Below, piece after piece: positions 36,383-63,940 of a stretch of DNA of 64,000 bases (position 1 is its first letter; every line of letters begins with the position of its first letter). The position numbers and the translations under genes were made by a program. The stretch spans positions 151,288 to 215,287 of the forward strand of contig NZ_QREG01000006.1 of NCBI RefSeq assembly GCF_003386095.1. The letters run 5' to 3'. The stretch is from Marinoscillum furvescens DSM 4134. Lineage in GTDB: Bacteria; Bacteroidota; Bacteroidia; Cytophagales; Cyclobacteriaceae. The notes beneath the pieces were generated by a model. The model worked only from the letters and a program-made list of their open reading frames with translations, did not search any database and was not told the DNA's origin.

Positions 36383-39010
36383 CTAAAGTTTGCGCGCACG
36401 ATTTATTAATCCTGGATCAGGATTATTTTTCTTAAAAATATGCTTAGCCCTACATTTCTGAGCCAATAGTTCTATTGCCCTCCTCTCATTTTCTTCCGTT
36501 GCCTTAAAGTCTTTGTTGAATTTCAAGGTTGTTAGCACGTCGGACAAAAAAAACGAATTCTTATCAAGTCCAACGATATAATCATCTATTGTTTTATACC
36601 AAGAATTCGGTCTCTCGGCTATTATGAGTAACATTAGTTCGTGTTTAATTAAACTATTAGTTTCGTTGATTGCTCTATCAATTAGGAGCGGCCCCATCTT
36701 CGTTGAGAAAAGGTCATCCTTAAAAAATTTCACAACATTGGTCGGAATCGACAACAAAACAGCATTCCTTTTTTCGATTGGGGTGTCAAATTTAAAATCT
36801 CCTTCATCAAGTTCAAACCTCGCACCCTCAAATGCTACATTTCCCCTATCCGCTAATAGGGGATGCAATACTATCAACAATTTATTCAATTCACTCCACG
36901 CTTGTGTAATCTTATCTAGTACTTCCTTTTTTAAACCAATCGAAACAAAATCACTATTACGCAAGGCTCTTGCTGTTGCAGAAATCTGCCTCATTAACAC
37001 TAAAAATGAATAATCTCGGAATACCGAATTAATTACTTGATTATATGGTTTAATTTGATCGTAGTGCTTGTCTGCATATTTATCTTTCACTTCATCTGGT
37101 AGGCCTGAAGTAATTACATTATCCTTTATTTTTTCTTGCTCTTTTTCTAATGAGGGAACATCCGGATTCCATGATATGGATTTATATGGATTAATTAAAT
37201 CTGGAATATTCATTTTTTCACGTACTACCAATAATGTCTCATCCAAATCCTGACTTAACACTGATAAGGCATCATCTTTGTTCCTATCAATTCCTGTGTA
37301 AAATTCAATTATTTCAGGAAAATCCACATAACGCTTATTCTCATAAACCTGCTCAAGGAATGCCTTATTCAAATTCATTCTCTGAGCAATAAAAAAGAAA
37401 ACCCAATAAGTATTCTTGAAATACAGATGATTGGAAGTAGTTTGACCTAATATCGAATTATCTTTTAAGACTGTAAGAAGGTAGGTAAGGTCGAGATCAA
37501 TTAAGTTAGCGTTACAAAAACCCTTAAGTTCAGATTTAAAGTAATTCTCAGTGAAATAAAAATCATTTTTAACTATCAATAACTCACAGAGATAACCAAG
37601 TACAAAAGAGCAATCCTTTACATCGGGCTTTTTATCATGGAAAGTAGGAATTTCATATTCTTCAAAAATTGTATTAAGCATTGTTTCCAATAATTTAGTT
37701 CGATTAATTGGATTATACTCTGAACCAATTTTAAATGAAGCTCTTAAAATTGACATACAGTTTTTAGCGGTCCTATGCATATTCAAGGTTTGTAAATCTT
37801 TAGCGACCTTTTCAAGCATAACATTATGATCCTCAGGAATTTCTTTTTGCTTCGTATATGAAGTAACAATCTTCCTCAGTTCTGTTTGAGGTAAAGGAAG
37901 TAAGTAATAAGTAAGAAATTTACGAGTTATTTCAACCCGATCATCCTCCTCAGATTTCAGGAAAAAATTATTATCGAGTGTATTAAATAATATAATTGGT
38001 GTACCTAGAAATTCATCACAAACATTTTTCACCATTTGCATAACACCCTGTTCGTCAAAACAGATTGAATCTATCAAAATACAGTCTATTTTTTCTGGAT
38101 TTGCGAAGTAGTAATTCCCGACTTCCCTTTTAATATCCTTAACAATCTTATGTTTCTTAGTTTTTTTAGAATCAATATAGAGAAATACTTTTCCTAATTT
38201 CCAAGCTTCGAGCTTTAAGTAATGAGCCAATGAAGTTAAACCAAATTCAGATGGAGCCTTTATAATGATATTCTTTGGCTCTGTAATTAGCGATACAAGA
38301 TCAACTTTATGTTCAAAGTTTTTGGTAGGATCACTTGGCACAACCTGTTTAGAGCTAATAATTGGATCTATCCAAATGGGAGATTTTTCATTATAAGTTT
38401 TTAAAGATTCTGATAGGTCATTTTCCAAATACTTTAAGGTGACGTCAATTTCCTTCACCCTATCCTCAGCGTTTTCAATCTGAGAATTTTCTTGAATAAA
38501 CAATTCAAGCTTTTGAGTTAGTGAACCTCTAAATTCATCCATCCCGCTAAATGGAATATACAACCCCAAAGAGGAAATACGCTCCTTGAAATCCTTAACC
38601 TTACTATATTGATCAAAATCGAGCATATCAGGATCTACTTTTTCCTTACCGAAGAAAAACAGAATCTTAGGATGGGAATTACGCATTTTAATTTTACGCC
38701 GAATCGCATCATTAAACTCATGCTCTGTTCCGCTTCCAGCTTTTTTAGTGGGATGTCCAAATCTATTTTTCATTATCCCAATAAAGACATCATAATTTGA
38801 CTTTTTTACATACTCGTCTATGATATCTTGTCCATTTTTCCCCATATCTGGTAGGACATCATATTCCCACATAAATGTTTCTAGTCCAATCCCAAAATGT
38901 TTACCAAACCTCACGGTAATTTCATTGACTACCCTAACACAAACGTCCCGTTCCTCTTGACAATCTCCCGGCGAAGAAATAAAACACTTAAAAATTTTTC
39001 GAGTTACCAT
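36383..39010 (-). CDS. DUF4062 (TIR-like) N-terminus with STAND-like NTPase region, candidate defence protein
   Basis: An 875-aa protein in distinctly AT-rich DNA. Residues 5-125 match DUF4062: KIFKCFISSPGDCQEERD, YDVFIGIMKNRFGHPT and GSGTEHEFNDA, a TIR-related fold. Residues about 235-420 look like a STAND/AAA-type NTPase: the P-loop position reads KAPSEFGLTS (251-260), lacking the usual GK lysine, and the Walker-B-like strand is IDCILIDSICFDE. The rest is helical, as in STAND sensor regions. DUF4062-STAND proteins are often found in antiphage islands; defence is inferred from architecture, solitary placement and composition. No partner gene is evident. Confidence 0.7.
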   Translation of the reverse strand: MVTRKIFKCFISSPGDCQEERDVCVRVVNEITVRFGKHFGIGLETFMWEYDVLPDMGKNGQDIIDEYVKKSNYDVFIGIMKNRFGHPTKKAGSGTEHEFNDAIRRKIKMRNSHPKILFFFGKEKVDPDMLDFDQYSKVKDFKERISSLGLYIPFSGMDEFRGSLTQKLELFIQENSQIENAEDRVKEIDVTLKYLENDLSESLKTYNEKSPIWIDPIISSKQVVPSDPTKNFEHKVDLVSLITEPKNIIIKAPSEFGLTSLAHYLKLEAWKLGKVFLYIDSKKTKKHKIVKDIKREVGNYYFANPEKIDCILIDSICFDEQGVMQMVKNVCDEFLGTPIILFNTLDNNFFLKSEEDDRVEITRKFLTYYLLPLPQTELRKIVTSYTKQKEIPEDHNVMLEKVAKDLQTLNMHRTAKNCMSILRASFKIGSEYNPINRTKLLETMLNTIFEEYEIPTFHDKKPDVKDCSFVLGYLCELLIVKNDFYFTENYFKSELKGFCNANLIDLDLTYLLTVLKDNSILGQTTSNHLYFKNTYWVFFFIAQRMNLNKAFLEQVYENKRYVDFPEIIEFYTGIDRNKDDALSVLSQDLDETLLVVREKMNIPDLINPYKSISWNPDVPSLEKEQEKIKDNVITSGLPDEVKDKYADKHYDQIKPYNQVINSVFRDYSFLVLMRQISATARALRNSDFVSIGLKKEVLDKITQAWSELNKLLIVLHPLLADRGNVAFEGARFELDEGDFKFDTPIEKRNAVLLSIPTNVVKFFKDDLFSTKMGPLLIDRAINETNSLIKHELMLLIIAERPNSWYKTIDDYIVGLDKNSFFLSDVLTTLKFNKDFKATEENERRAIELLAQKCRAKHIFKKNNPDPGLINRARKL

Positions 39011-47602: not shown

Positions 47603-48877
47603 TTACTTACCCTTAGCCTCTTGTCCTTTTTTGATCCGCTCCCGCTGTTTTTTGCTTAGTCCATGTTGGTAGTAGAAATTCGGGTCGGCATGGTAGTATC
47701 CATGGGCTTTCATCTCTGGATCGTCTACCTCAAGACTCAGATCACAGTCAAACCGCATCAGGATGCTCACCAGTGGGTCCCACCCAAACGCCGGAGCCAA
47801 ATGTGACAGCCCCCAGGTGATGCCTTTGCCATAGTCGGTGTTCGTAAATGCATCCGGCACATACGGCCCTGCCGCTATCGGCATCAGCTCGGTGATGGCC
47901 GCAATCTCAAAGTTTACCCCATCGGGAGCATACTGAATGGTAAAGTGCTCGTTTCCATCTTTGATCACCAGTGCAGCTACGCCCTCCCGAAAAGGAAAAA
48001 GAGTGGTTTCATGACCAGAATTGATCACCGGATTTAGTGGGTGCTTGGTAAAAGGCCCTAGTGGATCTTCTGCTATGGCCAGTCCCTGCATACGCACAAG
48101 ACGTGGATCTCCATCAGCATCCGACTTGTAGTACAGGTAGATTTTGCCATCACGCACGATTGGGTACGGATCATGTATGCTGTACTGATCCCACTCTCCC
48201 GGAGCCCCATTGGGAATTACAATTTCTCCATGGGCTGTCCAGGGACCATCTGGCGAGTCTGCATAGGAAACCGCCACCGGGCAGTCATCACCACGCAAGC
48301 CACTGGCCTCCATAAAGCCCTGATAGTACAGGTAATATTTGCCTTTCCACTTGAGGATATCCGTAGTGGTCACCGACCTCCAGCCTACTTCAGGCTTAGG
48401 CGGACGTGGCACCGCTACTCCCTGTTCCTCCCAGGTGAAGCCGTCTTCACTGGTAGCATACCAGATTTCGGACAGGTCCCAGTCAGACGAGGGAATGGTG
48501 TCGTTGGCCTCCGCAGCACGTCGCAGCCCTACAGGTTTTACCTTCGTATTTCGGTAGGTGTACCATACATAGTACTTACCATTTTCATAGATCACCTTTG
48601 AGGGATCTCTGCGGGTAATCGTACCATCGTAGTTGTTATAATCAAATCCCTTGAGCTCAGTATACCGAAACTGTGTGTAAAGCTCATTGTCCTCCGGCCG
48701 TGGCGCATCGTAGGCTTCATAGTTGCGATTCATCGCCGCACTCAGCTCTCGGTCAGGCTTTTCTTTGGGCAGCCAAAAAGGAAAGGCTTCAGTATCCTGA
48801 GCTACGGCTGCAGGCAAGCTCAGCGCTATCAGCACTACCAGCGCTATCGTTTGTTTCTTAGATTTCATCATATTCAT
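47603..48877 (-). CDS. GH117 alpha-1,3-(3,6-anhydro)-L-galactosidase (neoagarooligosaccharide hydrolase)
   Basis: 424 aa from the ATG at 48877, which overlaps the GH86 stop as ATGA and gives a clean signal peptide (MNMMKSKKQTIALVVLIALSLPAAVAQ). The five-bladed propeller of GH117 is visible: TRRDPSKVIYENGKYYVWYTYR, TTTDILKWKGKYYLYYQGF, QYSIHDPYPIVRDGKIYLYYKS and GHETTLFPFREG, supplying the acidic catalytic residues. Family members release 3,6-anhydro-L-galactose from the non-reducing end of neoagaro-oligosaccharides in the periplasm. GH43-like folds are related, but the HDPYP segment and agarolytic neighbours favour GH117. Cotranscribed with GH86. Confidence 0.87.
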   Translation of the reverse strand: MNMMKSKKQTIALVVLIALSLPAAVAQDTEAFPFWLPKEKPDRELSAAMNRNYEAYDAPRPEDNELYTQFRYTELKGFDYNNYDGTITRRDPSKVIYENGKYYVWYTYRNTKVKPVGLRRAAEANDTIPSSDWDLSEIWYATSEDGFTWEEQGVAVPRPPKPEVGWRSVTTTDILKWKGKYYLYYQGFMEASGLRGDDCPVAVSYADSPDGPWTAHGEIVIPNGAPGEWDQYSIHDPYPIVRDGKIYLYYKSDADGDPRLVRMQGLAIAEDPLGPFTKHPLNPVINSGHETTLFPFREGVAALVIKDGNEHFTIQYAPDGVNFEIAAITELMPIAAGPYVPDAFTNTDYGKGITWGLSHLAPAFGWDPLVSILMRFDCDLSLEVDDPEMKAHGYYHADPNFYYQHGLSKKQRERIKKGQEAKGK

Positions 48878-51054
48878 TGTTTTATAAACCGAATGTTTTC
48901 TACTGCGGTAGCCGAGTGTACCTGTAGGCAATATACACCTTGTGGCAGGTGTGCCACATCTAGTTTCCCATTGGTGGCAAACTGCCCCTGACCGTAAGTC
49001 TTTCCAGACATGTCTAGTATCCTGAAGGTCCCCTCAGATCGGTTGATCACAAAGGAGTCGTGTACAGGATTAGGAGCAACCTGCAGCTTCCCCATTCCAG
49101 CAGGAGCATTCAGCACCTCGGCGGTAGCCACCTTTTTGGAACGCGCTATTTCTGTACTGAAGTTAAATACCTGCAGTGCCAGAGAAGTCAGGTGACCACC
49201 ATTGTCAGGAAAAGTCAGCTCTACGGTATTCTCTGCCTTTAAAACATCATGAGGCACCGGCACTTCGATCACTCCAAAGAAACGATCGCGTGTTTTTTGA
49301 TCAAACCCTCTCCAGTCATCTGGCACCTCCACTTTAGCGCCATTGATCAACAACGTAGGCTTCAGGCTCTGCCCATGGTCACGCCCCAGCCCCAGCCGAA
49401 GGATTGCTTCACCATGTTCGGTCAGCTGTACATTGCTAAACACATAGGTTTGCTTTGCATTGGCGCTAATCGGCTGAAAGTACTGATCGGCAAAGTAGGT
49501 CGTTTCGTTGTTCTCCTCAGTCAGGGTAACCTCTTCGGCAAACTCGTATTTGAGCAGCGCTGTAGCCTGATTTTTAATGGTAAGCTGATCTATGGCCTCT
49601 GTATAGTAGGTGGTGTCCAGCACAGGCACTTCGTTGGCATCTGCATACAGGTGTTTTACGGTGAGTTTTTGCAGGGTTTTGTCTGAAATCCCCTGTAGGT
49701 TGAGCACTACATCTGTATCTGCATGCTCCAGCGTATTGATGAGCACAAACAGGTTTTTTCCGTCCACATAGCCATCCACCTGCACATCGGGATCGGTGGC
49801 ATAGGTATCTATGCGTGTACCATTTAGCTCTACCCAAAACTGAAAAAACTTGAGCAGGTGTGTGTAGATATAGCCTCCATGTGCAGGCTCTCCGGGCAGC
49901 TCTCCCAGTTCGCGCATCAGGCGTGCCTGGTAGCCATTATACTCGGCACCGGCAGGTTTGGCCCAGTTGGCTTTTAGCAAAAAGAAAGGAATGGAATGTA
50001 CAATCTGATCCTGACGCTCCAGTATTTGCATAAACATGGAGTTGAACGAACGCAGGTTGTACCAATCTTCACGCTCCAGGTATGGACTATTGTCTTCACA
50101 CCCACTACACAAAAATCCGTACTCACTAACCGACCAGGGCTTGGTCTCCCCCAGCCTGAGGTAGCTGTAGTGATTGATCATGTCCATGATCGCCTGCATG
50201 TTGCTACCACTCCGGTAGGTCATCGCCTCCATCTGATCTACCCCTTCTGGCGCATTGTCATACAGGTGAAAGGAAAAGAAGTCCATGTTTTCGCCAGCCA
50301 CATCTATAAACATCTTCCAGTTGTTGCGCCAGTGGTTAAAGTCGGACGCTTCAAACATTGGGTGTGCAGCAGAGTAGCCACCCACCATTACCTCAGGGTT
50401 CAGTTCTTTCACACGCTGCGCCACCACATTATGAAACCTGGCAATTTCGGTTCGAGTGGTATTTAGTTTATTGGCCTTTACAAAAGGCTCATTCAGGACC
50501 TCAAGAAACCTGGGCTTCACCTTACCAGTGCTCCCTCCAGTGCCAAAAAACTTATCGAGATAGTGGGTATAAAACTCAGCCGTAGCCTCATGTCCCGCAT
50601 AGACCAGGTCATTTCTGGTAGCCTGTCCATGTGGATACATGTGCTCCTGCCCTCCGATCATCATGTTGCTGTAGCGGTGCTCCAGTGAATGTATTTTTGT
50701 TTTGTTTGCGTACCCATTTTTGGTATTTACGGCGCGCTCCGACATATAATCCACCGAAGGCCACCCTGCTTTATTCGGATCTTCTTTGGTGTTGTTCCAC
50801 TCCCACACGATGCCTCCATTGTTTCTGCCGGCATATACGTCGTAGCCTTCGTACAAGTCTATCTTTTGCTGATCGCTCTCCCACTCATTGCCATCTATGT
50901 CTTCATGAAAGATGATGTGCCTGGAGCGGTCAAAGTCCGCATAGCCATTGACAGCATGTTTGACATGCACATTCACGTCTACGGTATCTTGCGCCTGAGT
51001 CTGTAGCCCCAGGCACACACTCCCGAGCAGCATCAGGGTATATCGTTTCTGCAT
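48874..51054 (-). CDS. GH86 beta-agarase/beta-porphyranase with T9SS tail
   Basis: A 726-aa secreted endo-hydrolase with a signal peptide ending LGLQTQAQ. A (beta/alpha)8 barrel (about 20-400) has LEVLNEPFVKA with acid/base E189 and WSVSEYGFLCSGCE with nucleophile E311; GGIVWEWNNT and FFSFHLYDNAPEG are other family segments. Two beta-sandwich domains follow (about 410-640) and a T9SS tail (VAPNPVHDSFVINRS...). GH86 cuts beta-1,4 bonds in agarose or porphyran; porphyran is favoured by the demethylase and sulfatases nearby. The gap 51055-51257 before it must hold the promoter; no copy of the TGARCA motif is seen there. Confidence 0.88.
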   Translation of the reverse strand: MQKRYTLMLLGSVCLGLQTQAQDTVDVNVHVKHAVNGYADFDRSRHIIFHEDIDGNEWESDQQKIDLYEGYDVYAGRNNGGIVWEWNNTKEDPNKAGWPSVDYMSERAVNTKNGYANKTKIHSLEHRYSNMMIGGQEHMYPHGQATRNDLVYAGHEATAEFYTHYLDKFFGTGGSTGKVKPRFLEVLNEPFVKANKLNTTRTEIARFHNVVAQRVKELNPEVMVGGYSAAHPMFEASDFNHWRNNWKMFIDVAGENMDFFSFHLYDNAPEGVDQMEAMTYRSGSNMQAIMDMINHYSYLRLGETKPWSVSEYGFLCSGCEDNSPYLEREDWYNLRSFNSMFMQILERQDQIVHSIPFFLLKANWAKPAGAEYNGYQARLMRELGELPGEPAHGGYIYTHLLKFFQFWVELNGTRIDTYATDPDVQVDGYVDGKNLFVLINTLEHADTDVVLNLQGISDKTLQKLTVKHLYADANEVPVLDTTYYTEAIDQLTIKNQATALLKYEFAEEVTLTEENNETTYFADQYFQPISANAKQTYVFSNVQLTEHGEAILRLGLGRDHGQSLKPTLLINGAKVEVPDDWRGFDQKTRDRFFGVIEVPVPHDVLKAENTVELTFPDNGGHLTSLALQVFNFSTEIARSKKVATAEVLNAPAGMGKLQVAPNPVHDSFVINRSEGTFRILDMSGKTYGQGQFATNGKLDVAHLPQGVYCLQVHSATAVENIRFIKQ

Positions 51055-51257: not shown

Positions 51258-53438
51258 TTACTTCACCACCATACGAGTACGCGCCTGTCCTGCAGCGCTC
51301 GTTATCTGCACAACGTAGACACCACCTGGCAAAGGTGACACACCCAGTTGGACGGTATGCTTGGCAGCATCCAATTTTACCGGTACGGCCAGTGCATTGC
51401 CAGCCAGATCATACACCCTTACCTCCTGCATGGAAGCAAACATTGGCTCGAGCAACCTGACATTTACCTGATCATGTGCAGGAGTAGGATATACACTGAG
51501 TGCCTGGCTTTTGGGCACCGCCAATACATCTGTAGGCTGGTTTGGATTCACGATAGAGATGTCGGATAGTGTATCCGCATACACCTCCTGTGATTGTTGG
51601 CTGGTCATCTTCACAATCACCTGGTAGTTTTCTCCTGTCGCGAGTGCCGAATCAGCAAAAATGCTTCTGGTGAGCGTACGAGCACCCAATCGCTCTTCAC
51701 GCAGCTTCTCTGCCTTTGGCTCATAGTTTTCGTCGGTAAGGGTCAAACTTATATCCACATCTTCTTCTGAACCATATTCAAAAGTCACCGACACCACTGG
51801 TATGTCTTCCACCAGCTCTACTTCGGCATTGGTCACCAACATGTGCGGTTTAATGGGTTCAGCTACGGTAAATGGCGCATTACTAATGGCATGAACGGCC
51901 TGCTGCCAGTTAGAGCCTACCGGTCGGATGTGGGCTTTGAAATAGTATCCAGCTCCCGGAGTGGTCGGACTATTTACCGGAAGGTTTAGGGTCACTACTC
52001 CGCGTCCAGAAACAGGCTCGGAGGTAGCTGCTCCCAGCCACTTATTGTTGGGGTCTCTGATTTCCCCACTGATCTCCATAGGTCCATCTGCTTCATAGCG
52101 TACTTGCACGGCGTAGCCCGTAGAGGTGGGTTCTAGCCGTGTGGGCAGCATATCGCCAAAGACTTTGTTTTCCAGGGGCTCTTCCTCTGGAGTAAACCGT
52201 AGCGTATCAGTTGAAAGCACCTCCCCTTCATCTTCGAGCCGTGCAATCATCACGTAGGTCTTACCTGCCTCGAAAGACTCATAAAAAGTCTCATTAACGT
52301 GGTAGGAATGTACCCCTGCAGGTACCTTGGCTGACGAACGAAAGAAGCTCTTCCCTGATTCACGTAACAGCTCTGTAGTAACCCTGGCTTCCTTTGCCAG
52401 TGAGTAGATGAGGGTTTTGTCCAATTGGTCTCCGGCATAAGTCGGTGCCTCTGGCTGGTGAAAGGCTATGGCATTGTTTTGATCATTGAACACGCTGGCA
52501 TCCACGTCTACCAACTGCCAACTTCGCACCCAGTCGTAGGTCACAGCGCGCTGCTCTTTGGTACGAAATTCATCCTCAAACATGTAAGCCTCAGGCTTAG
52601 GGTTTCCGGCATTGTTTTCATCGCTACCCCATGTGTAAGTTTCCATCACAATGATCACCGGCATGGGTAGGTTAAAATTCCGTGTGGGCGTGATCGTTCC
52701 AAAAGCTCTTCCATTGAGGTAAAACTCGGCTTCATTGGCATTTTTCCACCACATGCCTACGGTATTGAAGTCCAGCGGCCCTTCCAGCGGCTGAGACTTC
52801 ACCCCACTCTTGGTGGACTCGTAGGGCAGGCTCACGCAGTTTCCACCTTCAGATTTGAAAGGTTTGGCGTGTGAGTTTACATTCTGATGGAAGTTAAAGC
52901 CTGTAGTATTGGCACCAGGACCATCATAGCTCATGTTTTCGATGATATCCAGCTCCGTGTGGTACTTTTCGTCGCAAATGTCTGAGCTGGTCTTTCGGGA
53001 GTTCATAAACACCCCGCTGCCCATCGGGAAGTTACTAGCCTTGAGTCGCACCTCGAAATAGCCGTAAGTTGCCAAAGCTCGGGTATCCATACCCCCACCA
53101 GCAAAAAGATAAGTCCGATCGCCTTTGGTAAACTGCTCATCTTCATAATACCACATAGGGTTCATGGTGAGAAAGTAATTATTGGTTTTTGGGTCGTGAA
53201 CCACCTCATGGATCCGCTTGTCAAAGGCAGAGGTACGGTCCCAGGAGTCCCCTTTGTCAAACACGCGCCATTTCTCCGTATCAGGACTATTGGCGTCAAA
53301 CTCATCTGACATGGCGGGTATTTTGATCCAAACCTTCCCCGCTGGTGGAGCTGGTGGTTGTGACACGCCAGGTATTGCTACCAAAATCATCAGCAGCGCG
53401 AAACATGAAACAAGCAGTGGTCTGATCAATGAATTCAT
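51258..53438 (-). CDS. GH16 beta-agarase/beta-porphyranase with Ig-like domains and T9SS tail
   Basis: A 726-aa secreted enzyme with a signal peptide (LLMILVAIPGVSQ). Residues 35-315 form the GH16 jelly roll with the beta-bulge motif ELDIIE (E162 nucleophile, D164, E167 acid/base) and upstream GYFEVRLKASNFPMGSGVFMNS. Two or three Ig/FN3-like domains follow; one (about 440-510) shares the phrase FKAHIRPVGSNWQQAV with the CBM6 protein at 61158. A T9SS tail (SVYPTPAHDQVNVRL) ends it. Endo-cleavage of agarose or porphyran at the cell surface is expected; the subfamily cannot be fixed by eye. Confidence 0.88.
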   Translation of the reverse strand: MNSLIRPLLVSCFALLMILVAIPGVSQPPAPPAGKVWIKIPAMSDEFDANSPDTEKWRVFDKGDSWDRTSAFDKRIHEVVHDPKTNNYFLTMNPMWYYEDEQFTKGDRTYLFAGGGMDTRALATYGYFEVRLKASNFPMGSGVFMNSRKTSSDICDEKYHTELDIIENMSYDGPGANTTGFNFHQNVNSHAKPFKSEGGNCVSLPYESTKSGVKSQPLEGPLDFNTVGMWWKNANEAEFYLNGRAFGTITPTRNFNLPMPVIIVMETYTWGSDENNAGNPKPEAYMFEDEFRTKEQRAVTYDWVRSWQLVDVDASVFNDQNNAIAFHQPEAPTYAGDQLDKTLIYSLAKEARVTTELLRESGKSFFRSSAKVPAGVHSYHVNETFYESFEAGKTYVMIARLEDEGEVLSTDTLRFTPEEEPLENKVFGDMLPTRLEPTSTGYAVQVRYEADGPMEISGEIRDPNNKWLGAATSEPVSGRGVVTLNLPVNSPTTPGAGYYFKAHIRPVGSNWQQAVHAISNAPFTVAEPIKPHMLVTNAEVELVEDIPVVSVTFEYGSEEDVDISLTLTDENYEPKAEKLREERLGARTLTRSIFADSALATGENYQVIVKMTSQQSQEVYADTLSDISIVNPNQPTDVLAVPKSQALSVYPTPAHDQVNVRLLEPMFASMQEVRVYDLAGNALAVPVKLDAAKHTVQLGVSPLPGGVYVVQITSAAGQARTRMVVK

Positions 53439-53571: not shown

Positions 53572-56055
53572 TCAACGTCCAGGCACTACCGAAGCAGAAG
53601 CAAGCCCCTCACCTCTGGCACTGACCTGAATCGTACCCGGATCCGTCACCCGCACAATGGCCAATGCCCGGCCCAAACTCGTAGTAACTGATGATTTGTA
53701 GTGGTTCTCCACATTGTATTCGGAGCCATTGTCTACCGCTATCAGCTCACCTCCCGTTACTTCAAAGCTGACCGAACGTTCCACGTGCCTCACAGGCTGA
53801 CCCGCCGCATCCATTAGCTGCACGGTAACAAAGGCGAGCTCTCCCTTTTCGTAGGTATTTTTGTTCTGATCCAAACTAATCACTGATGGTGAACCAGCGG
53901 TTGTAAGCGTATACTCCGACACCTGCTTGCCCGACGAATACCCGATAGCCTTGAGGGTACCAGACGCATAGGGCACCAACCATTTGATGATGTTGTCATC
54001 GGCAAAATCGGCAAGTGCTTGCTTGCCCAGGCTTCGCTCATTGAGGAAAAGCTCTACTTCTTCTGCATTGGTATAGACCTGCACAATCATGTCTTGATTT
54101 TCTTCAAAATTCCAGTGCTGCTCTACGTGCTGATACCACTCCCAGCGACGCAGCGCAGGCCAAATAGGGGCTTTTTTGAGTTGAAACTCAAACTGCCATC
54201 CCTTTTCTGGATCAAAAGAATATTCTGATTTACTAGCCGGGGTTACTACCATGTAGGTCTTTGGTGCCGGCACCCAAAGCGTCTCAAAAAAGTGCCCTCG
54301 TGGTGTTTTAAAGCCTGCATAATCGAAGAAAGCAATCTCCAGTCCTTTACGGGGCCAGGGCCCGGCCTCTCCCAGGTAGGCAAAGCCCGTCCAGGCAAAC
54401 ATACCCGCTACAAAATCCCGGCTATTGACAGCTTTCCATTCGGTGTAGTCACCCCAGTTTTCCGAACCAATGATTTTCATGTCCGGGTAGGTTTCATGCG
54501 CAGCATCATAGCTCATCTGGCGGTAGTTGAACCCAAGCACATCCACCGCATCAGCATAGCCGCTCACCGCCGCTACAGACGGGCGCACACTCCCACAGGT
54601 GATGGCACGGGTGGTATCCAGCTCTCGCACCCAGGCGGCCAGCTGCTGAGCTACTGTAGCCAGGGTGTCCTTGCCTTGTGTCACCTCATCAAATGCTGCT
54701 TTTACAGTTTCTGGATCAAAATTGGGTGCTTCGCCGTAAGCATTTATCCCCTGATTGACCTGGTGGTACGCTTTGCTGTAGTCAGGAAAAGTCCACTCTA
54801 TCTCATTGCCAATGCTCCACATGATCACCGATGGGTGGTTGTAATCCCGACGGATGAGGTCTTTGAGGTCACGCTCAGCCCACTCATGAAAATATTCGCT
54901 GTAACCGGCAGCTAATTCACCTTTGGCGGCATTGTCGCCGATGTAGTTCAGGTTTTTGCCTTTGGGCACATGCCACTCGTCAAAAAACTCATCCATGACG
55001 AGCACTCCTAGCTCATCGCAGAGGTCAAGCAAATCCACCGAGTGCGGATTGTGTGACATTCGGATGGCATTTACACCGATGGACTGCAACTTACGCACGC
55101 GATACTCCCAGGCCGAGCGTGGTACTGCAGCACCCAATGCACCTGCATCATGGTGCAGGTTTACACCCTTGATCTTTACCTGCTTGCCATTGAGCAGAAA
55201 GCCCCGGTCGGCAGTAAACGCAATGTCTCGCACACCAAATCGAACAGCTTTTTCATCTACCAGCTCTTCTCCATTATAAACCTTCACCACAGCATCGTAC
55301 AGGTGAGGACTTTCCAAATCCCAAAGTTTAGGGTTGTCAAGCTTGATAGTGGCATTTCCATCCTGGTCCAGCGCTTTACTGGCTACTTCTAATCCTTCAT
55401 CGTTGAGAATCGTCACGTGGGCTGTGGTTTCAGGGCTCGCGCCGTTGAGCTGCACAGCGAGATTTACATTGGCACTGCTGCTGCTTACCTCAGAGGTGTT
55501 TACGCGAACGCCCCAGTGGGCCACGTGTGTAGGCTGAAGCTTTACGAGACGTACATCACGGTAAATCCCCGAACCAGTGTACCACCTGGTGTCAGCGTAA
55601 GCCGAGTGATCTACATTTACCACGATTTCGTTAGGCTCGTCTACATTCACATAAACGGTGAGATCATAAGCAAAACTGCTGTAGCCATTGGGTCTAAAAC
55701 CCAGCAGCTGACCATTAATCCAAACCTGTGAGTTGCAATACACTCCATCAAACTCCAAACGAATGACTTTACCCGCATCTGCTGGCGCAGGTGTATATGT
55801 CTTTCGATACCACCCCACACCTCCGGGAACAAACCCCGTACTGGCAGCTGTATTTTCTTCCTTATACCCTTCACGTATACTCCAGTCGTGTGGCAGGTCC
55901 ACCTGCTTCCATTCTACGGATGGATCCTGTGGGCTCTCTAAAGTGCCCAGGTAAAACTGCCAGTCCTGATTGAAATCGAGGGTTTCGCGTGTGTTTTGTG
56001 CTTGCTGGCACCTTACCAATGCCAGTACTGCGAAAAGGTAAATGAGTCGCTTCAT
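53572..56055 (-). CDS. GH2 beta-galactosidase, lipoprotein
   Basis: An 827-aa GH2 of standard length with a lipoprotein signal (MKRLIYLFAVLALVRC). Jelly-roll (LPHDWSIREGYKEENTAAST), Ig-like and TIM-barrel domains are in order. Acid/base E418 is in WSIGNEIEW and nucleophile E532 in IIGSENWGD; IRMSHNPH and MDEFFDEW are family landmarks. It should remove terminal beta-D-galactose, or 6-O-methyl-galactose, from agar/porphyran oligomers in the periplasm. The start overlaps the esterase stop by 4 bp, placing it in an operon with the esterase and alcohol dehydrogenase. Confidence 0.9.
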   Translation of the reverse strand: MKRLIYLFAVLALVRCQQAQNTRETLDFNQDWQFYLGTLESPQDPSVEWKQVDLPHDWSIREGYKEENTAASTGFVPGGVGWYRKTYTPAPADAGKVIRLEFDGVYCNSQVWINGQLLGFRPNGYSSFAYDLTVYVNVDEPNEIVVNVDHSAYADTRWYTGSGIYRDVRLVKLQPTHVAHWGVRVNTSEVSSSSANVNLAVQLNGASPETTAHVTILNDEGLEVASKALDQDGNATIKLDNPKLWDLESPHLYDAVVKVYNGEELVDEKAVRFGVRDIAFTADRGFLLNGKQVKIKGVNLHHDAGALGAAVPRSAWEYRVRKLQSIGVNAIRMSHNPHSVDLLDLCDELGVLVMDEFFDEWHVPKGKNLNYIGDNAAKGELAAGYSEYFHEWAERDLKDLIRRDYNHPSVIMWSIGNEIEWTFPDYSKAYHQVNQGINAYGEAPNFDPETVKAAFDEVTQGKDTLATVAQQLAAWVRELDTTRAITCGSVRPSVAAVSGYADAVDVLGFNYRQMSYDAAHETYPDMKIIGSENWGDYTEWKAVNSRDFVAGMFAWTGFAYLGEAGPWPRKGLEIAFFDYAGFKTPRGHFFETLWVPAPKTYMVVTPASKSEYSFDPEKGWQFEFQLKKAPIWPALRRWEWYQHVEQHWNFEENQDMIVQVYTNAEEVELFLNERSLGKQALADFADDNIIKWLVPYASGTLKAIGYSSGKQVSEYTLTTAGSPSVISLDQNKNTYEKGELAFVTVQLMDAAGQPVRHVERSVSFEVTGGELIAVDNGSEYNVENHYKSSVTTSLGRALAIVRVTDPGTIQVSARGEGLASASVVPGR

Positions 56056-58265: not shown

Positions 58266-59429
58266 ATGAAGAAGAGCGAATTACCTGACCCATTTTCGGA
58301 TGCCCGAAAGACCAAAGGCTGTGGCCAGATGCATGACCAGGGCGATGATGTAACCATGGTACTGGGTCTGAAAGACGTACGCAAGTGCGCGCACAACTGG
58401 AAGACGTTTCAATCGGGAGCAAAGCCGGGCCGCATCGTGGTACCCAACGAGGAATACATTCGCGAAACGCGCCAGATTCCGTTCGAGGTAGATCCACCAG
58501 CACATGGGGACTACAGAGCGCTGGTAGAGCCGTGGTTTAAGCGTCCGCTAGAAGTCGCCTATCAGGAAAAGCTTCAGCAGCTCGTAGGCCAATCCATTGA
58601 CGAGGCACTAAGTGCTGGAGAGCTGGAGGTGGTCAGTGATTTTGCACTGAAGCTCCAATCCAGAGCGCTCACAGTCCTGCTCAACATTCCCCTGGAGGAA
58701 TCCGAAACGTGGATCAAATGGGGCACACATGTATTTAGAAGTGAAGATAGTCCTGTAGATGGCGATAAAGCCAAAATCCTGTATGACTACATCGATGCGC
58801 AGATAGACCAAGCCCTGGCGTCTCCCGGTGAGGACCTTTACTCGGTGCTGCTATCCTCTGAGGTAAACGGGCAAAAGCTGACGCGCGAAGAGGTTAAAGG
58901 CGTCATGATCCTGACTTTCGCCGGAGGGCGTGATACAGTAATCAATGCCGTCACCAACACCATTGCCTACTTTGCAGAGCATCCGCAATCACTGGACCGT
59001 CTACGCCAGGAGCCAGAGCTCATTACCCGATCGGTGGAAGAGCTGATTCGCTATTTTTCACCACTCACCCACATGGGACGGGTAGTAACAGAAGACACAC
59101 AAGTATGCGAACATGCTCAAAAGGTAGACTCCAGAATATCACTGGTGTGGGCATCGGCCAATCGAGACGAACGCATTTTTGAAAAGCCCAATGAAGTAGT
59201 GCTGGACCGTAAGGTAAACCCACACGTAGCCTTTGGCTTTAGCCACCACAACTGTCTGGGAGCTACACATGCCCGCACACTACTAAAAATTTTAATCAAG
59301 ACGCTATCCGAACGCATCGGAAAGATGGAAATCACCGACCACCAGGACAACATAGAAGAATGGGGTGAATTTAAGCGCAAGGTGGGCTTTGATAGCCTGA
59401 AAGTAAAATTTGAAGAAACTAAAGGATAA
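58266..59429 (+). CDS. Cytochrome P450, 6-O-methyl-D-galactose demethylase type
   Basis: A 387-aa soluble bacterial P450. I-helix AGGRDT (219-224), ExxR at E259-L-I-R262, and heme loop FGFSHHNCLG with ligand C330. The loop has Ser where most P450s have the second Gly. Together with the following ferredoxin and reductase this matches the known three-gene set (CYP236-type) of porphyran-degrading Bacteroidota, which oxidatively demethylates 6-O-methyl-D-galactose to galactose plus formaldehyde. Six bp separate it from the ferredoxin. Family placement is by context and length; substrate activity is inferred. Confidence 0.88.
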   Translation: MKKSELPDPFSDARKTKGCGQMHDQGDDVTMVLGLKDVRKCAHNWKTFQSGAKPGRIVVPNEEYIRETRQIPFEVDPPAHGDYRALVEPWFKRPLEVAYQEKLQQLVGQSIDEALSAGELEVVSDFALKLQSRALTVLLNIPLEESETWIKWGTHVFRSEDSPVDGDKAKILYDYIDAQIDQALASPGEDLYSVLLSSEVNGQKLTREEVKGVMILTFAGGRDTVINAVTNTIAYFAEHPQSLDRLRQEPELITRSVEELIRYFSPLTHMGRVVTEDTQVCEHAQKVDSRISLVWASANRDERIFEKPNEVVLDRKVNPHVAFGFSHHNCLGATHARTLLKILIKTLSERIGKMEITDHQDNIEEWGEFKRKVGFDSLKVKFEETKG

Positions 59430-59435
59430 CAACCA

Positions 59436-59744
59436 ATGGCAAAAATTACATTTATCACACAAACTGGTACCCAGATCACCGCAGAAGCATCTTCAGGCAA
59501 CATCATGGAGCTGGCCAAAGAAAATAATGTGGAAGGCATAGACGGAGACTGTGGGGGCGTATGCTCCTGTGCTACCTGCCATGTGCACGTGGCCCCCGAG
59601 CATTTTGACAAAGTAGGTAAGGCCAGTGAAATAGAGGAAGACATGCTGGAGCTGGATGACAATGCCAATGAATACAGCCGACTGGGCTGTCAGATCGAAA
59701 TCAGTGAAGACCTGAACGGCATAGTGCTGCAAGTAGCCAACTAG
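59436..59744 (+). CDS. [2Fe-2S] ferredoxin, adrenodoxin/putidaredoxin type
   Basis: 102 aa. Cluster cysteines C39, C45, C48 and C85 follow the C-x5-C-x2-C...C pattern in DCGGVCSCATCHVHV and RLGCQIE, with an extra C43. It passes electrons from the downstream reductase to the P450. Start is 6 bp after the P450 stop; its own stop is 1 bp before the reductase. Confidence 0.93.
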   Translation: MAKITFITQTGTQITAEASSGNIMELAKENNVEGIDGDCGGVCSCATCHVHVAPEHFDKVGKASEIEEDMLELDDNANEYSRLGCQIEISEDLNGIVLQVAN

Positions 59745-59745
59745 T

Positions 59746-60972
59746 ATGGATACGAAAGCAATGACGTGTGTGATCATAGGCGCCAGCCACGGGGGTGTTA
59801 ACTGTGCCTTTAATCTACGCAAAGAAGGTTGGGAAGGCGCTATCATCCTCTATGATGCGGACTCACACCTGCCCTACCACCGGCCGCCACTATCGAAGAC
59901 TTTTTTGACTTCCGATGATGCCATAGAAAAGCATTCACTCAAAGCTGCAGAAAGCTATGATAAGGCCGGCATTGCCCTGAGGTTGGGTGAAAAAGTAGCT
60001 ACAATAGACCGTGAAGCTAAAACAATTACCACTGCATCCGGCACTTCTCAACCTTATGACAAGTTGGTACTGGCTACGGGAGCACGGCCATTTGTCCCGC
60101 CTATCGCAGGACTTGCACAGGCCGCTAATGTACACGTACTGCGCACTGCTGAAGGTGTACTAGGCATACGCGAGGCGCTAAAAGCCAAACCCAGGCAGGC
60201 GGTGATCATCGGCGGTGGATATATCGGACTGGAAATTGCTGCCTCGCTGCGCAAACTCGGACTAGATGTGACTGTACTCGAGCGCGAAGCACGCCTCCTA
60301 CCACGTGTAACTTCACCGGAAATGTCCACTTTCTTTGCTGAGCTGCATGCCGCCAATGGCACTACGATCGCCTGCTCAAAGAATGTCTCTAAAATAACTA
60401 CTGATGCGGTGCACTGTGCTGATGGCAGCACCTATGCAGCCGATCTGATCATTGTTGGTGTGGGCATCCGCGTAAACACTGAACTGGCAACAGCCGCCGG
60501 CCTGAAAACCACCAACGGCATAGTGGTGAACGAACAGACCCAAACCAACGATCCTGACGTATACGCCCTGGGTGACTGCACGCTCCACCACAGCAAACAC
60601 TACAACAGGCCTGTTCGATTAGAATCGGTCCAAAACGCAGTAGATCAAGCCAAGGTAACGGCTGCCTCAATATGCGGCAAAGAAGCTTGCTACGATAGCA
60701 TCCCGTGGTTTTGGTCAGACCAGTATGATGCCAAGTTGCAAATGGTGGGTCTGTCGGAAGGTTATACACAAGTGATCCTCCGCGACGAACCCGGTGAAGG
60801 ACTCAAAAAATCAGCGTGGTATTTTAAGGGTGACGAATTGCTCGCTGTAGATGCCGTAAACAATGCCAAGGCGTATGTGCTGGGCACCAAGTTCATCAAA
60901 GACCGCATCTCGGTCAACAAAGAAAATCTTGCCAATACCGAGCTTCCGCTCAAGCCGGGGAATTTGGTTTAA
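59746..60972 (+). CDS. Ferredoxin reductase (FAD/NAD(P)H, putidaredoxin-reductase-like)
   Basis: A 408-aa flavoprotein. The N-terminal FAD dinucleotide fold is CVIIGASHGGVNCAFNLRKEG, the NAD fold is AVIIGGGYIGLEIAASLRKLG, and DPDVYALGDCT is the second FAD motif. The C-terminal reductase domain is complete. It completes the class I electron chain for the P450. ATG at 59746 is one base after the ferredoxin stop, indicating a single transcript. Confidence 0.93.
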   Translation: MDTKAMTCVIIGASHGGVNCAFNLRKEGWEGAIILYDADSHLPYHRPPLSKTFLTSDDAIEKHSLKAAESYDKAGIALRLGEKVATIDREAKTITTASGTSQPYDKLVLATGARPFVPPIAGLAQAANVHVLRTAEGVLGIREALKAKPRQAVIIGGGYIGLEIAASLRKLGLDVTVLEREARLLPRVTSPEMSTFFAELHAANGTTIACSKNVSKITTDAVHCADGSTYAADLIIVGVGIRVNTELATAAGLKTTNGIVVNEQTQTNDPDVYALGDCTLHHSKHYNRPVRLESVQNAVDQAKVTAASICGKEACYDSIPWFWSDQYDAKLQMVGLSEGYTQVILRDEPGEGLKKSAWYFKGDELLAVDAVNNAKAYVLGTKFIKDRISVNKENLANTELPLKPGNLV

Positions 60973-61157: not shown

Positions 61158-63110
61158 ATGAAAACCAAGCTATTGTTACTACTCACTCTCGCATTTTCCG
61201 TCTGTCTCGACGGAAATTCCAGGCAGTATTTCAATAAGAATACAGATCTACTGCTTGCCAACTTTGACCTCAAACCGGATGAAGACGATGTACATGCTGC
61301 TGCCGCTCTCGCTTCTATGCTCATCCATCCGGACCTGGCTGGTGTAGATTACTATGCAGTGGCCGGAGCTTACGGCACACAAGGTGGTACGTTTATCACC
61401 ACCGCTGTACCGGGCTATTACAACAACCTTTTTGGTCCTGAAAATCAAAAATGGACCAACGCAAATGCCAACTGGAGCGCCTCCGTAAACCGGGTACGCG
61501 ACAAGGTAAAAGCTGTGTTAGATGGCGGAGGTAAAGTCTTCGTGCAGGAAGCAGGCCAGTCAGACTTTACCTATGACATGCTACAGGCTGTAATCAATGC
61601 GGGTGTGTCTCTTTCTACTGTGCAGTCCAAAGTGATTGTGGTGCAGCACAGCCAGTGGAATGAAGACAAAGCCACGCAATGGAAGCTCAACTGGGTAAAA
61701 AACAACACGGACTACAACAAAATTGCCGATGGCAATGGCAACAATGCCACACCGCAGTACAATACAGGCAACACCACATGGATGAATCAGGCCAAGTCGG
61801 CAAGCAATCCGAACGCCTCTGCAAGATCCTTTTGGACGCAGGCAGACAACATCTGCGACAACTGGAATGCATCATGGGAAAACCCAAACATCGCGGGAGG
61901 TGGTGTAGATTATTCGGACTGTGTAGAAAACTGGTGGATTTTCAACATTGGCACAGATGCCGACAACATCTCCAAGTTTTGGAATCGATACGTAGTGAAC
62001 ACACCTTCTGGAGGTGGAGCTGAAACCGTGAGCTGTAGCTCGCTTCCTTCTTCCATTCAGTCGTCCACTTCTATCACGGTAAGTGTTCCCTACTCCGCAA
62101 ATCAGTCACGTGATGTGGTGGTAGAGTTTTGGGACAACAACTGGATTGCTAGTGGCAAAACAACAGTGAGTGCCGGATCTGGCACGGCCTCTGTCACCAT
62201 CAACCTCCCATCAGCACCAGCTGCAGGGTCCAATTACATCTTTAAAGTAAGCATCCGTCCGGTTGGTGGCAACTGGACTACCAACATTGATTTCTGCCAG
62301 AAAAACAATGTGACAGTGACTACTGGTGGCAGTGGCCAATCTCCTTATGGTGGCTCTGCATGGACCATTCCTGGTCGAGTAGAAGCTCAAGATTACGATC
62401 TTGGTGGAGAAGGTGTAGCCTATCACGACACAGACGCTTCTAACAACGGCGGAGCCTACAGAACCGATGGAGTAGATATCGAAACAACTGGAGATACCAA
62501 TGGCGCATACAATGTGGGCTGGATGCAGCCTGGTGAGTGGCTGGAATACACCGTAAATGTCAACACCACACAAAGCTATCACTTCTATGCTCGCGTAGCC
62601 TCTATCAATGGCAACGGGCAATTTAGAATTCTAGTGGATGGTAGCGATGTGTCCGGCACACTCAATGTAAACAACACAGGTGGCTGGCAAAGCTACTACA
62701 CCATCACAGTACCTAATGTAACGATGAGTTCGGGCCAACATGTGGTAAGAATTGAGGTGATTTCCTCAGGACTCAACCTCAACTTCTGGTCGGCATGGAA
62801 GTCGCCTGGTGCCCGATTTGATAACACCACAATCACCGAAGCACCTACATTTGAAGCCAATGCTTTCCCTAACCCTCTTCCTCCAAACCAGCTACTCAAC
62901 GTGGACCTCACATTGACCGAAAAAGCAGATTTAAAAATGGAATTGGTGGCCATGGATGGACGTGTGGTTTTTGCTGATCAGGTGAGCGATCTTCAGCAGG
63001 GGCAGCAGCTCATCAAGCTGGACCCGAGAGCTCAGGCACTGAAGCCAGGCCTCTACCTACTGCGTGTAAGTGCAGGCGAATACAATAAGCAGATTCGCAT
63101 CAAGCTTTAA
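61158..63110 (+). CDS. Secreted nucleoside-hydrolase-like protein with Ig-like domain, CBM6 and T9SS tail
   Basis: 650 aa; the signal peptide is MKTKLLLLLTLAFSVCLDG. Residues about 30-280 recall the nucleoside-hydrolase fold: NFDLKPDEDDVHAAAAL at the start (like the Ca-binding DxDxxxDD of that family), later VFVQEAGQSDF and VENWWIFNIGTD. An Ig-like domain (about 295-390, FKVSIRPVGGNWTTNI) is followed by CBM6 (about 400-545: PGRVEAQDYDLGGEGVAYHD, VGWMQPGEWLEYTV), a module common in agarases. A T9SS tail (NAFPNPLPPNQLLNV) ends it. The N-terminal domain may be a glycan-active enzyme, since CBM6 binds agar ends; nucleoside cleavage seems unlikely for a surface protein. The 185-bp gap before it has a TTGGTTAACCAA palindrome at 61112-61123. 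Confidence 0.75.
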   Translation: MKTKLLLLLTLAFSVCLDGNSRQYFNKNTDLLLANFDLKPDEDDVHAAAALASMLIHPDLAGVDYYAVAGAYGTQGGTFITTAVPGYYNNLFGPENQKWTNANANWSASVNRVRDKVKAVLDGGGKVFVQEAGQSDFTYDMLQAVINAGVSLSTVQSKVIVVQHSQWNEDKATQWKLNWVKNNTDYNKIADGNGNNATPQYNTGNTTWMNQAKSASNPNASARSFWTQADNICDNWNASWENPNIAGGGVDYSDCVENWWIFNIGTDADNISKFWNRYVVNTPSGGGAETVSCSSLPSSIQSSTSITVSVPYSANQSRDVVVEFWDNNWIASGKTTVSAGSGTASVTINLPSAPAAGSNYIFKVSIRPVGGNWTTNIDFCQKNNVTVTTGGSGQSPYGGSAWTIPGRVEAQDYDLGGEGVAYHDTDASNNGGAYRTDGVDIETTGDTNGAYNVGWMQPGEWLEYTVNVNTTQSYHFYARVASINGNGQFRILVDGSDVSGTLNVNNTGGWQSYYTITVPNVTMSSGQHVVRIEVISSGLNLNFWSAWKSPGARFDNTTITEAPTFEANAFPNPLPPNQLLNVDLTLTEKADLKMELVAMDGRVVFADQVSDLQQGQQLIKLDPRAQALKPGLYLLRVSAGEYNKQIRIKL

Positions 63111-63298: not shown

Positions 63299-63940
63299 TT
63301 ACTTAATATCGAAATAGTTGCGAATCATTAATAGGTTATGCTCATCAAACTCATGTATATCGAGCAGTTCAACCGCTTTTTTTCGATAGCTTGAATCCCC
63401 AGTAATCAAATAAGCTCTCCTAAGGTAATCGATAGACAGCAGGGGTTTTGCATCAAGGTTTTCCGCCATGATCCCATAATACTCCGCCTGTTCAAAAGTT
63501 TGATTTAGAAAGTTCTCTAATGCCGTTTGAAAATTGGGCGAATGTTTAATGTATTCTGTTCTAACGAAATCAGAAGGAACTTTGAACCCCTTTGTCTTTA
63601 CAACCAGGGTCTCCTTACCCAGTGCATTCATTAGTCCTATCTCATAATAAATATTTGCAATGGTTGTTTGCTCCATTGTTTCAGAGACCACAGCTATGCC
63701 TAAAGGAACGGATAAGGCCAGTTTCCAAATTTTAGTATGAAAATCTCTTCCAGTGATCAATGAATTGGCATCCTTCGAATCAATATTTCTGGATGTCAAA
63801 ATCTGAGCTATCTCCGCAAGAATTTGAGTAAGTTCCTCAGATCGCTTTCCTCCTAACTGTGTCATAATGAACGCTGTTCTTGGATTATATCTAATCCACT
63901 GAGTTAGAACGTCATTATCAGTCGGGTTGTAATAGATCAT
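63299..63940 (-). CDS. Nucleoside 2-deoxyribosyltransferase/TIR-like domain protein
   Basis: A 213-aa soluble protein. AFIMTQLGGKRSEEL near residue 23, LGIAVVSET near 80 and IANIYYEIGLMNALGKETLVV near 94-115 (with E100) have the layout of nucleoside deoxyribosyltransferase/TIR-related domains, where this Glu is catalytic. The C-terminal third is helical. AT-rich relative to the glycan genes. Its ATG overlaps the stop of an upstream gene by one base (TAATG), so it is the second gene of an operon entering from the right. A role in defence signalling is possible but unsupported here. Confidence 0.6.
   Translation of the reverse strand: MIYYNPTDNDVLTQWIRYNPRTAFIMTQLGGKRSEELTQILAEIAQILTSRNIDSKDANSLITGRDFHTKIWKLALSVPLGIAVVSETMEQTTIANIYYEIGLMNALGKETLVVKTKGFKVPSDFVRTEYIKHSPNFQTALENFLNQTFEQAEYYGIMAENLDAKPLLSIDYLRRAYLITGDSSYRKKAVELLDIHEFDEHNLLMIRNYFDIK

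What the first reader, a model, noticed from the sequence alone, without database searches (positions are those of the whole stretch)
61158..63110. Nucleoside-hydrolase-like domain joined to CBM6 and a T9SS tail
The N-terminal domain begins with an acidic cluster (DLKPDEDD) like the Ca site of ribosidases, but the protein is exported and carries an agar-type CBM6. It follows the demethylase operon. It may be a new glycoside-cleaving or glycan-binding enzyme using the ribosidase fold.
Basis: partly seen in the sequence, partly recalled or inferred. Interest (0 to 1): 0.62.

Follow-up and report, generated by a model that had tools for sequence, protein, structure and literature searches.

The report
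Ribosidase-fold protein with porphyranase sugar-binding modules
A seaweed-degrading marine bacterium secretes a protein whose core resembles nucleoside-cutting enzymes but carries the sugar-binding modules of its red-algal agar/porphyran-cutting enzymes; it belongs to a widespread, unnamed and untested family that may contain a new class of sugar-bond-cutting enzyme.

Summary
The 650-aa ORF at 61158-63110 is real. The N-domain is nucleoside-hydrolase (NH)-related: its own AlphaFold model (pLDDT 91.7) matches NHs only weakly (best NH TM 0.49, no significant E-value), but a clear sister family (profile E 8.5e-12) gives a model whose top 17 PDB matches are all NH-fold (probability 0.99-1.00, TM mostly above 0.5). 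The acidic cluster is invariant in 33 homologues, but as D-x3-D-x-D-D, the spacing of Sde182/PF07632 NH-like proteins, not the NH fingerprint DxDxxxDD. An H-x3-N / DxN / DxSD signature is shared by both sister families. The CBM cassette recurs on GH86 porphyranases and GH16 enzymes of the same genome. GH86 occurs in 17/18 genomes with multimodular members, 0/17 with only stand-alone members, 0/42 without the family. Best reading: an exported, metal-site NH-fold protein acting on agar/porphyran, more likely enzyme than pure binder. Catalysis is not shown. A new family with a precedent (Sde_0182): new variant of a known kind.

The parts
61158..63110 (+). whole gene, 650 aa: signal-like N-terminus, NH-like domain, agarase-type binding module, CBM6, T9SS tail
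61158..61223 (+). signal-peptide-like N-terminus (MKTKLLLLLTLAFSVCLDGNSR)
   Evidence: read from the sequence; no signal-peptide predictor was run
61245..62012 (+). NH-like domain (aa 30-285), in no Pfam/NCBIfam family; AlphaFold2 pLDDT 91.7, pTM 0.91 (modelled stretch runs to aa 290)
61266..61289 (+). acidic cluster D37-x3-D41-x-D43-D44 after strand 1, D43/D44 at the start of helix 1; all four invariant in 33 sequences; putative metal site
61647..61661 (+). H164-x3-N168, invariant; equivalent H and N invariant in the sister family
61728..61736 (+). D191-G192-N193 (G and N invariant in 33, D in 31 of 33)
61908..61919 (+). D251-x-S253-D254, invariant, at the start of a helix; candidate for the distal metal Asp of NHs
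62016..62318 (+). beta-agarase-type binding module (aa 287-387), similar to PDB 8wae
62361..62786 (+). CBM6 (match aa 402-543; Pfam core 436-543)
62865..63101 (+). T9SS type A sorting tail (aa 570-648)
58266..60972 (+). upstream genes: cytochrome P450 (58266-59429), ferredoxin (59436-59744), ferredoxin reductase (59746-60972); a 6-O-methyl-galactose-demethylase-like set
   Evidence: role of such P450s in PMC10033563 (abstract); ferredoxin assigned by reading its sequence and position
48874..51054 (-). GH86-type beta-porphyranase with T9SS tail, same locus
51258..53438 (-). GH16-like enzyme with T9SS tail; carries a module related to aa 287-387 of the finding at 51891-52148
53572..56055 (-). 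GH2-family enzyme, same locus

Best explanation
An exported, T9SS-sorted protein whose N-terminal domain has a divergent nucleoside-hydrolase fold with a rebuilt acidic (probably Ca2+) site. Its agarase-type module and CBM6 place it on red-algal agar/porphyran next to the GH86 and GH16 enzymes that use the same modules. The domain most likely recognises a sugar by chelating vicinal hydroxyls on the metal, as NHs do with ribose O2'/O3', and hydrolyses a glycosidic bond (exo-type, or a side substituent) using the conserved Asp/His/Asn set. Shown: gene and modules, NH-related fold, invariant signature, link to porphyran/agar enzymes. Inferred: metal, catalysis, exact bond.
For: Fold: model of the sister family hits NHs, 4wr2 E 3.6e-4, top 17 all NHs or NH-fold XopQ, probability 0.99-1.00; sister linked to this family at hhalign E 8.5e-12; the window's own model ranks NHs as its most probable matches (8db6 0.96, 5tsq 0.87, 1r4f 0.84). 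Residues: D37, D41, D43, D44, H164, N168, N193, D251, S253, D254 invariant in 33 sequences at 45% mean column identity; D-x-DD, H-x3-N, D-x-N and D-x-SD are also invariant in the sister family. The core is constant while partner modules change (CBM6, CBM96, CBM10, GH115_C-like, Big; N- or C-terminal), the usual pattern of a catalytic core. Targeting: own-genome GH86 C18:48k carries the same two modules (52% identity) and GH86 C16:153k the agarase-type module; the GH16-type gene beside the paralogue carries it twice (73-77%). The R. agariperforans orthologue lies between two GH86 genes beside sulfatase genes. GH86 in 17/18 genomes with multimodular members, 0/17 stand-alone only, 0/42 without.
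Against: No activity is known for any member. The closest precedent, Sde_0182, is inactive on nucleosides and proposed to be a sugar-interacting module; XopQ is an inactive NH fold that binds ADP-ribose (PMC8910321). The Asp-10 slot of NHs holds K/A/Q/C/R in all 33 members, so the NH mechanism cannot be copied unchanged. The window's own model does not reach significance in Foldseek (best NH E 0.018, TM 0.48-0.49). Stand-alone members live in genomes without GH86, so the ancestral substrate need not be agar. The GH86 association rests on only about three independent contrasts in the tree.
Confidence: 0.55

Rival explanations
1. A non-catalytic sugar-binding module: the NH fold has lost hydrolysis and serves as a lectin-like, metal-dependent glycan-binding or capture domain, as proposed for Sde_0182.
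For: The Sde_0182 NH domain is inactive on nucleosides and XopQ is an inactive, ligand-binding NH fold (PMC8910321); the NH Asp-10 slot is never Asp here; the protein already consists of binding modules.
Against: A non-Asp invariant set (H164, N168, N193, S253) is kept as strictly as the metal Asps, also in the sister family, which is more than metal binding alone needs. Free-standing exported members of about 285 aa without CBMs exist.
Confidence: 0.3
2. An extracellular enzyme of the NH fold that acts on a minor or non-agar substrate (for example a furanoside, a nucleoside-like algal glycoside or a side chain) and is merely parked on agar by its CBMs.
For: Stand-alone members occur in genomes without GH86; a sister-family member is fused to a GH106-like rhamnosidase and another lies near a GH29-type fucosidase gene, so substrates probably differ.
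Against: The agar/porphyran modules and the neighbouring GH86/GH16 genes recur around the multimodular members.
Confidence: 0.12
3. A true exported nucleoside hydrolase that scavenges nucleosides.
For: NH-related fold.
Against: No PF01156 match in 33 members; fingerprint changed; multimodular agar targeting.
Confidence: 0.03

Closest known systems
Sde_0182 / Sde182_NH-like domain (Pfam PF07632, formerly DUF1593; PDB 2yhg)
   Same: NH-like domain in a CBM-bearing protein of a marine polysaccharide degrader; acidic motif spacing D-x3-[DE]-x-D-D in several members
   Different: No profile similarity; the PF07632 members aligned lack the H-x3-N, D-x-N and D-x-SD signature; PF07632 is absent from this genome
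Inosine-uridine-type nucleoside hydrolases (Pfam PF01156)
   Same: Fold, acidic loop after strand 1, and a distal Asp at a helix start
   Different: NH fingerprint DxDxxxDD absent; Asp-10 slot is K/A/Q/C/R; no Pfam match
XopQ/HopQ1 NH-fold effectors
   Same: NH fold without nucleosidase activity; XopQ is a structural match of the sister family
   Different: Type III effectors acting in plant cells; no CBMs (PMC8910321)
GH86 beta-porphyranase with agarase-type module, CBM6 and T9SS tail (own genome C18:47.5-50.7k)
   Same: Same accessory modules in the same order before the T9SS tail, 52% identity
   Different: The catalytic core is a GH86 instead of the NH-like domain

Membership tests
Nucleoside hydrolase (PF01156) | match to the family profile | tested here: not met
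   no PF01156 match at E<=10 in 33 members or in the sister family; hhalign E 0.008 over the motif only
Nucleoside hydrolase (PF01156) | DxDxxxDD fingerprint | tested here: not met
   D-x3-D-x-D-D in 33 of 33; position of Asp-10 is K24/A4/Q2/C2/R1
Nucleoside hydrolase (PF01156) | NH fold | tested here: met
   own model weak (probability 0.96, TM 0.48, E 0.018); sister family strong (probability 1.00, E 3.6e-4, TM 0.52-0.57)
Nucleoside hydrolase (PF01156) | distal metal-binding Asp about 230 residues downstream | tested here: inconclusive
   D254, invariant, at a helix start, 210 residues after D44; no coordinates available to measure the site
Nucleoside hydrolase (PF01156) | hydrolysis of N-ribosides | not testable with these tools
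   needs assay
Sde182_NH-like (PF07632) | match to the family profile | tested here: not met
   no match in 33 members; none in the whole genome; hhalign E 0.3
Sde182_NH-like (PF07632) | Asp/Glu spacing D-x3-[DE]-x-D-D | tested here: met
   e.g. TDIEADPDD in L054 and FDLKPDEDD here; several PF07632 members have shorter or longer loops
CBM6 | PF03422 above its cut-off | tested here: met
   81.4 bits against 28.9
Agarase-type CBM6 | closest to beta-agarase CBM6 | tested here: not met
   2y8k E 2.7e-29 against agarase 2cdo E 0.02
T9SS cargo | C-terminal sorting domain | tested here: met
   TIGR04183 32.1 bits, cut-off 23; PF18962 24.5, below 27
A CAZy glycoside hydrolase family | sequence membership and demonstrated activity | not tested
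   no CAZy library available; no Pfam or NCBIfam family covers aa 30-285

The most novel reading that the evidence does not exclude
The domain founds a new glycoside-hydrolase class: a metal-dependent NH-fold enzyme that cleaves O-glycosidic bonds in agar/porphyran, with a D-x3-D-x-D-D site and an H-x3-N / D-x-N / D-x-SD signature shared by two unnamed sister families.
Probability: 0.3. Interest if true: 0.75.

Novelty: new variant of a known kind. Interest (0 to 1): 0.5.

Why it matters
Polysaccharide utilisation loci still hold many exported proteins without a family. This one has a defined fold, a conserved putative active site, a likely substrate and close relatives in cultured agar degraders, so one expression experiment could decide whether the nucleoside-hydrolase fold has been recruited to cut polysaccharides. 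No description of the family was found in the held literature.

Tried and rejected
Direct profile search of the PDB with the family or the sister family: no relative. hhalign against PF07632 and PF01156 alone: only the Asp motif or the second strand motif aligns, E 0.3-0.008; merging both families on both sides gives E 5.6e-4 in a sensible register, probability 30%, against E 0.05-0.8 for reversed controls: supportive, not decisive. Neighbourhoods of stand-alone members: no shared neighbour family beyond two loci, so they gave no functional clue. Phages: no relative; plasmids: Persicobacter and Catenovulum only. The idea that the domain is simply a PF07632 or PF01156 member was rejected by profile tests. 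Tree-based test of the GH86 link: only three independent contrasts, none opposing, too few for significance. The model's coordinates were not readable, so the geometry of the metal site was not measured.

Full report
What is there. The ORF 61158-63110 (+) encodes 650 aa. From the N-terminus: a signal-like stretch; a domain at aa 30-285 that matches no Pfam or NCBIfam model; a module at aa 287-387 similar to a solved beta-agarase domain, PDB 8wae (E 3e-24); a CBM6 (E 9e-23); and a T9SS sorting tail.

Relatives. The N-domain is found in Reichenbachiella agariperforans, Catenovulum, Aquimarina, Saccharicrinis, Agaribacterium, Algibacter and others, in 12 of 395 genomes sampled from the phylum, and as a 58% identical paralogue in the same genome. 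Members come in two forms: multimodular, with CBM6, CBM96, CBM10, GH115_C-like or Ig-like partners on either side, and free-standing proteins of about 285 aa. In Catenovulum a second domain follows the first; it belongs to a sister family (hhalign E 3.3e-6, and 8.5e-12 with more members), present twice more in this genome.

Fold. AlphaFold2 on the family gives pLDDT 91.7 and pTM 0.91. Foldseek finds no match with E below 0.001; nucleoside hydrolases are its most probable matches (0.96, 0.87, 0.84; TM 0.48, 0.49 and 0.39), while the first hit by E-value is an incoherent triosephosphate-isomerase match (TM 0.25). The model of the sister family (pLDDT 86.8) resolves this: its top 17 matches are all nucleoside hydrolases or the NH-fold effector XopQ, E from 3.6e-4, probability 0.99-1.00, TM mostly 0.51-0.55. 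Together with the clear homology of the two families this makes the NH fold well supported, although for the window's own domain the step is by inheritance from its sister.

Active site. In 33 sequences D37, D41, D43, D44, H164, N168, N193, W226, D251, S253 and D254 are invariant, at a mean column identity of 45%. D43 and D44 start helix 1 right after strand 1, and D254 starts a late helix; NHs hold their metal with two Asps of the strand 1-helix 1 loop and one about 230 residues downstream (PMC8910321). The spacing here is D-x3-D-x-D-D, not the NH fingerprint DxDxxxDD; the slot of NH Asp-10 is Lys in 24 of 33 and never Asp. The same spacing is seen in PF07632 proteins. The sister family keeps D-x-DD, H-x3-N, D-x-N and D-x-SD. 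Merged profiles of both sister families against merged PF07632 and PF01156 give E 5.6e-4. Which residue acts as base, and that the ion is Ca2+, are inferences.

Targeting. The window is a porphyran-type locus: GH86, GH16, GH2, sulfatases and a P450/ferredoxin/reductase set of the kind that demethylates 6-O-methyl-galactose (PMC10033563). In the same genome a GH86 porphyranase on contig 18 carries the same module pair at 52% identity, another GH86 carries two copies of the agarase-type module, and the GH16-type gene beside the paralogue carries two copies at 73-77%. In R. agariperforans the orthologue lies between two GH86 genes, with a run of sulfatase-like genes beside them. In Flavivirga (L010) the next gene is a GH16 with Big_2, CBM96 and T9SS modules like those of its NH-like neighbour. 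GH86 (PF18206) is present in 17 of 18 genomes with multimodular members (exception L026), in 0 of 17 with only stand-alone members (one sub-threshold trace) and in 0 of 42 without the family. S. aurantiacus holds both forms and is counted as multimodular; some members (L011, L013, L016) were called multimodular by ORF length. The tree shows these states cluster, leaving about three independent contrasts, none opposing, so this is strong association but weak evolutionary replication.

Mechanism. Most likely the CBMs dock the protein on the algal galactan, and the NH-like domain binds a terminal or side-chain sugar through its acidic metal site and hydrolyses it. The alternative, a metal-dependent binding domain, has a real precedent: the NH domain of Sde_0182 is inactive on nucleosides and has been proposed as a furanose-interacting module (PMC8910321). 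The strict conservation of His, Asn and Ser beside the Asps, and a constant core with exchangeable CBMs, tip the balance to an enzyme, about 55 to 30.

Known or new. The general idea, an NH-like domain in a carbohydrate-binding protein, is known. This family and its sister are separate from PF07632 and PF01156 by profile, have no Pfam or NCBIfam name, and were not found in the literature searched. It is best called a new variant of a known kind, with a testable chance of being a new enzyme class.

Noticed in passing
own genome C16:76883-77587 and C14:14995-15738 (L123, L122): Two members of the unnamed sister NH-like family (motif DGN..DxDDW.AT, D-x-SDAGM); one is part of a 1098-aa multimodular protein, the other is a separate gene of about 300 aa near an alpha-L-fucosidase-like gene.
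   Followed up: partly
L079 (G064:C53:102539-103279): A sister-family NH-like domain is fused behind a stretch related to glycoside hydrolase structures 5mqm/5mqn and 6q2f (GH106-type rhamnosidase, by recall), in one long reading frame.
   Followed up: partly
G051 contig 16: 96265-96975 (L042) and 107916-108698 (L054): A stand-alone member of this family and a PF07632 protein lie about 11 kb apart in the same genome.
   Followed up: no
window 36383-39010 (-): 875-aa protein with DUF4062 and a weak STAND-type NTPase match, beside a rhomboid/MORN protein (34424-36373); looks like a defence or signalling gene inside a polysaccharide locus.
   Followed up: no
window 63299-63940 (-): 213-aa ORF without a Pfam or solved-structure match next to the finding.
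   Followed up: partly
window 15458-18349 (+): 963-aa ORF with no Pfam match inside the polysaccharide-degradation region.
   Followed up: no
L012, L014, L016 (Catenovulum): Two different NH-like domains in tandem in one exported protein.
   Followed up: partly
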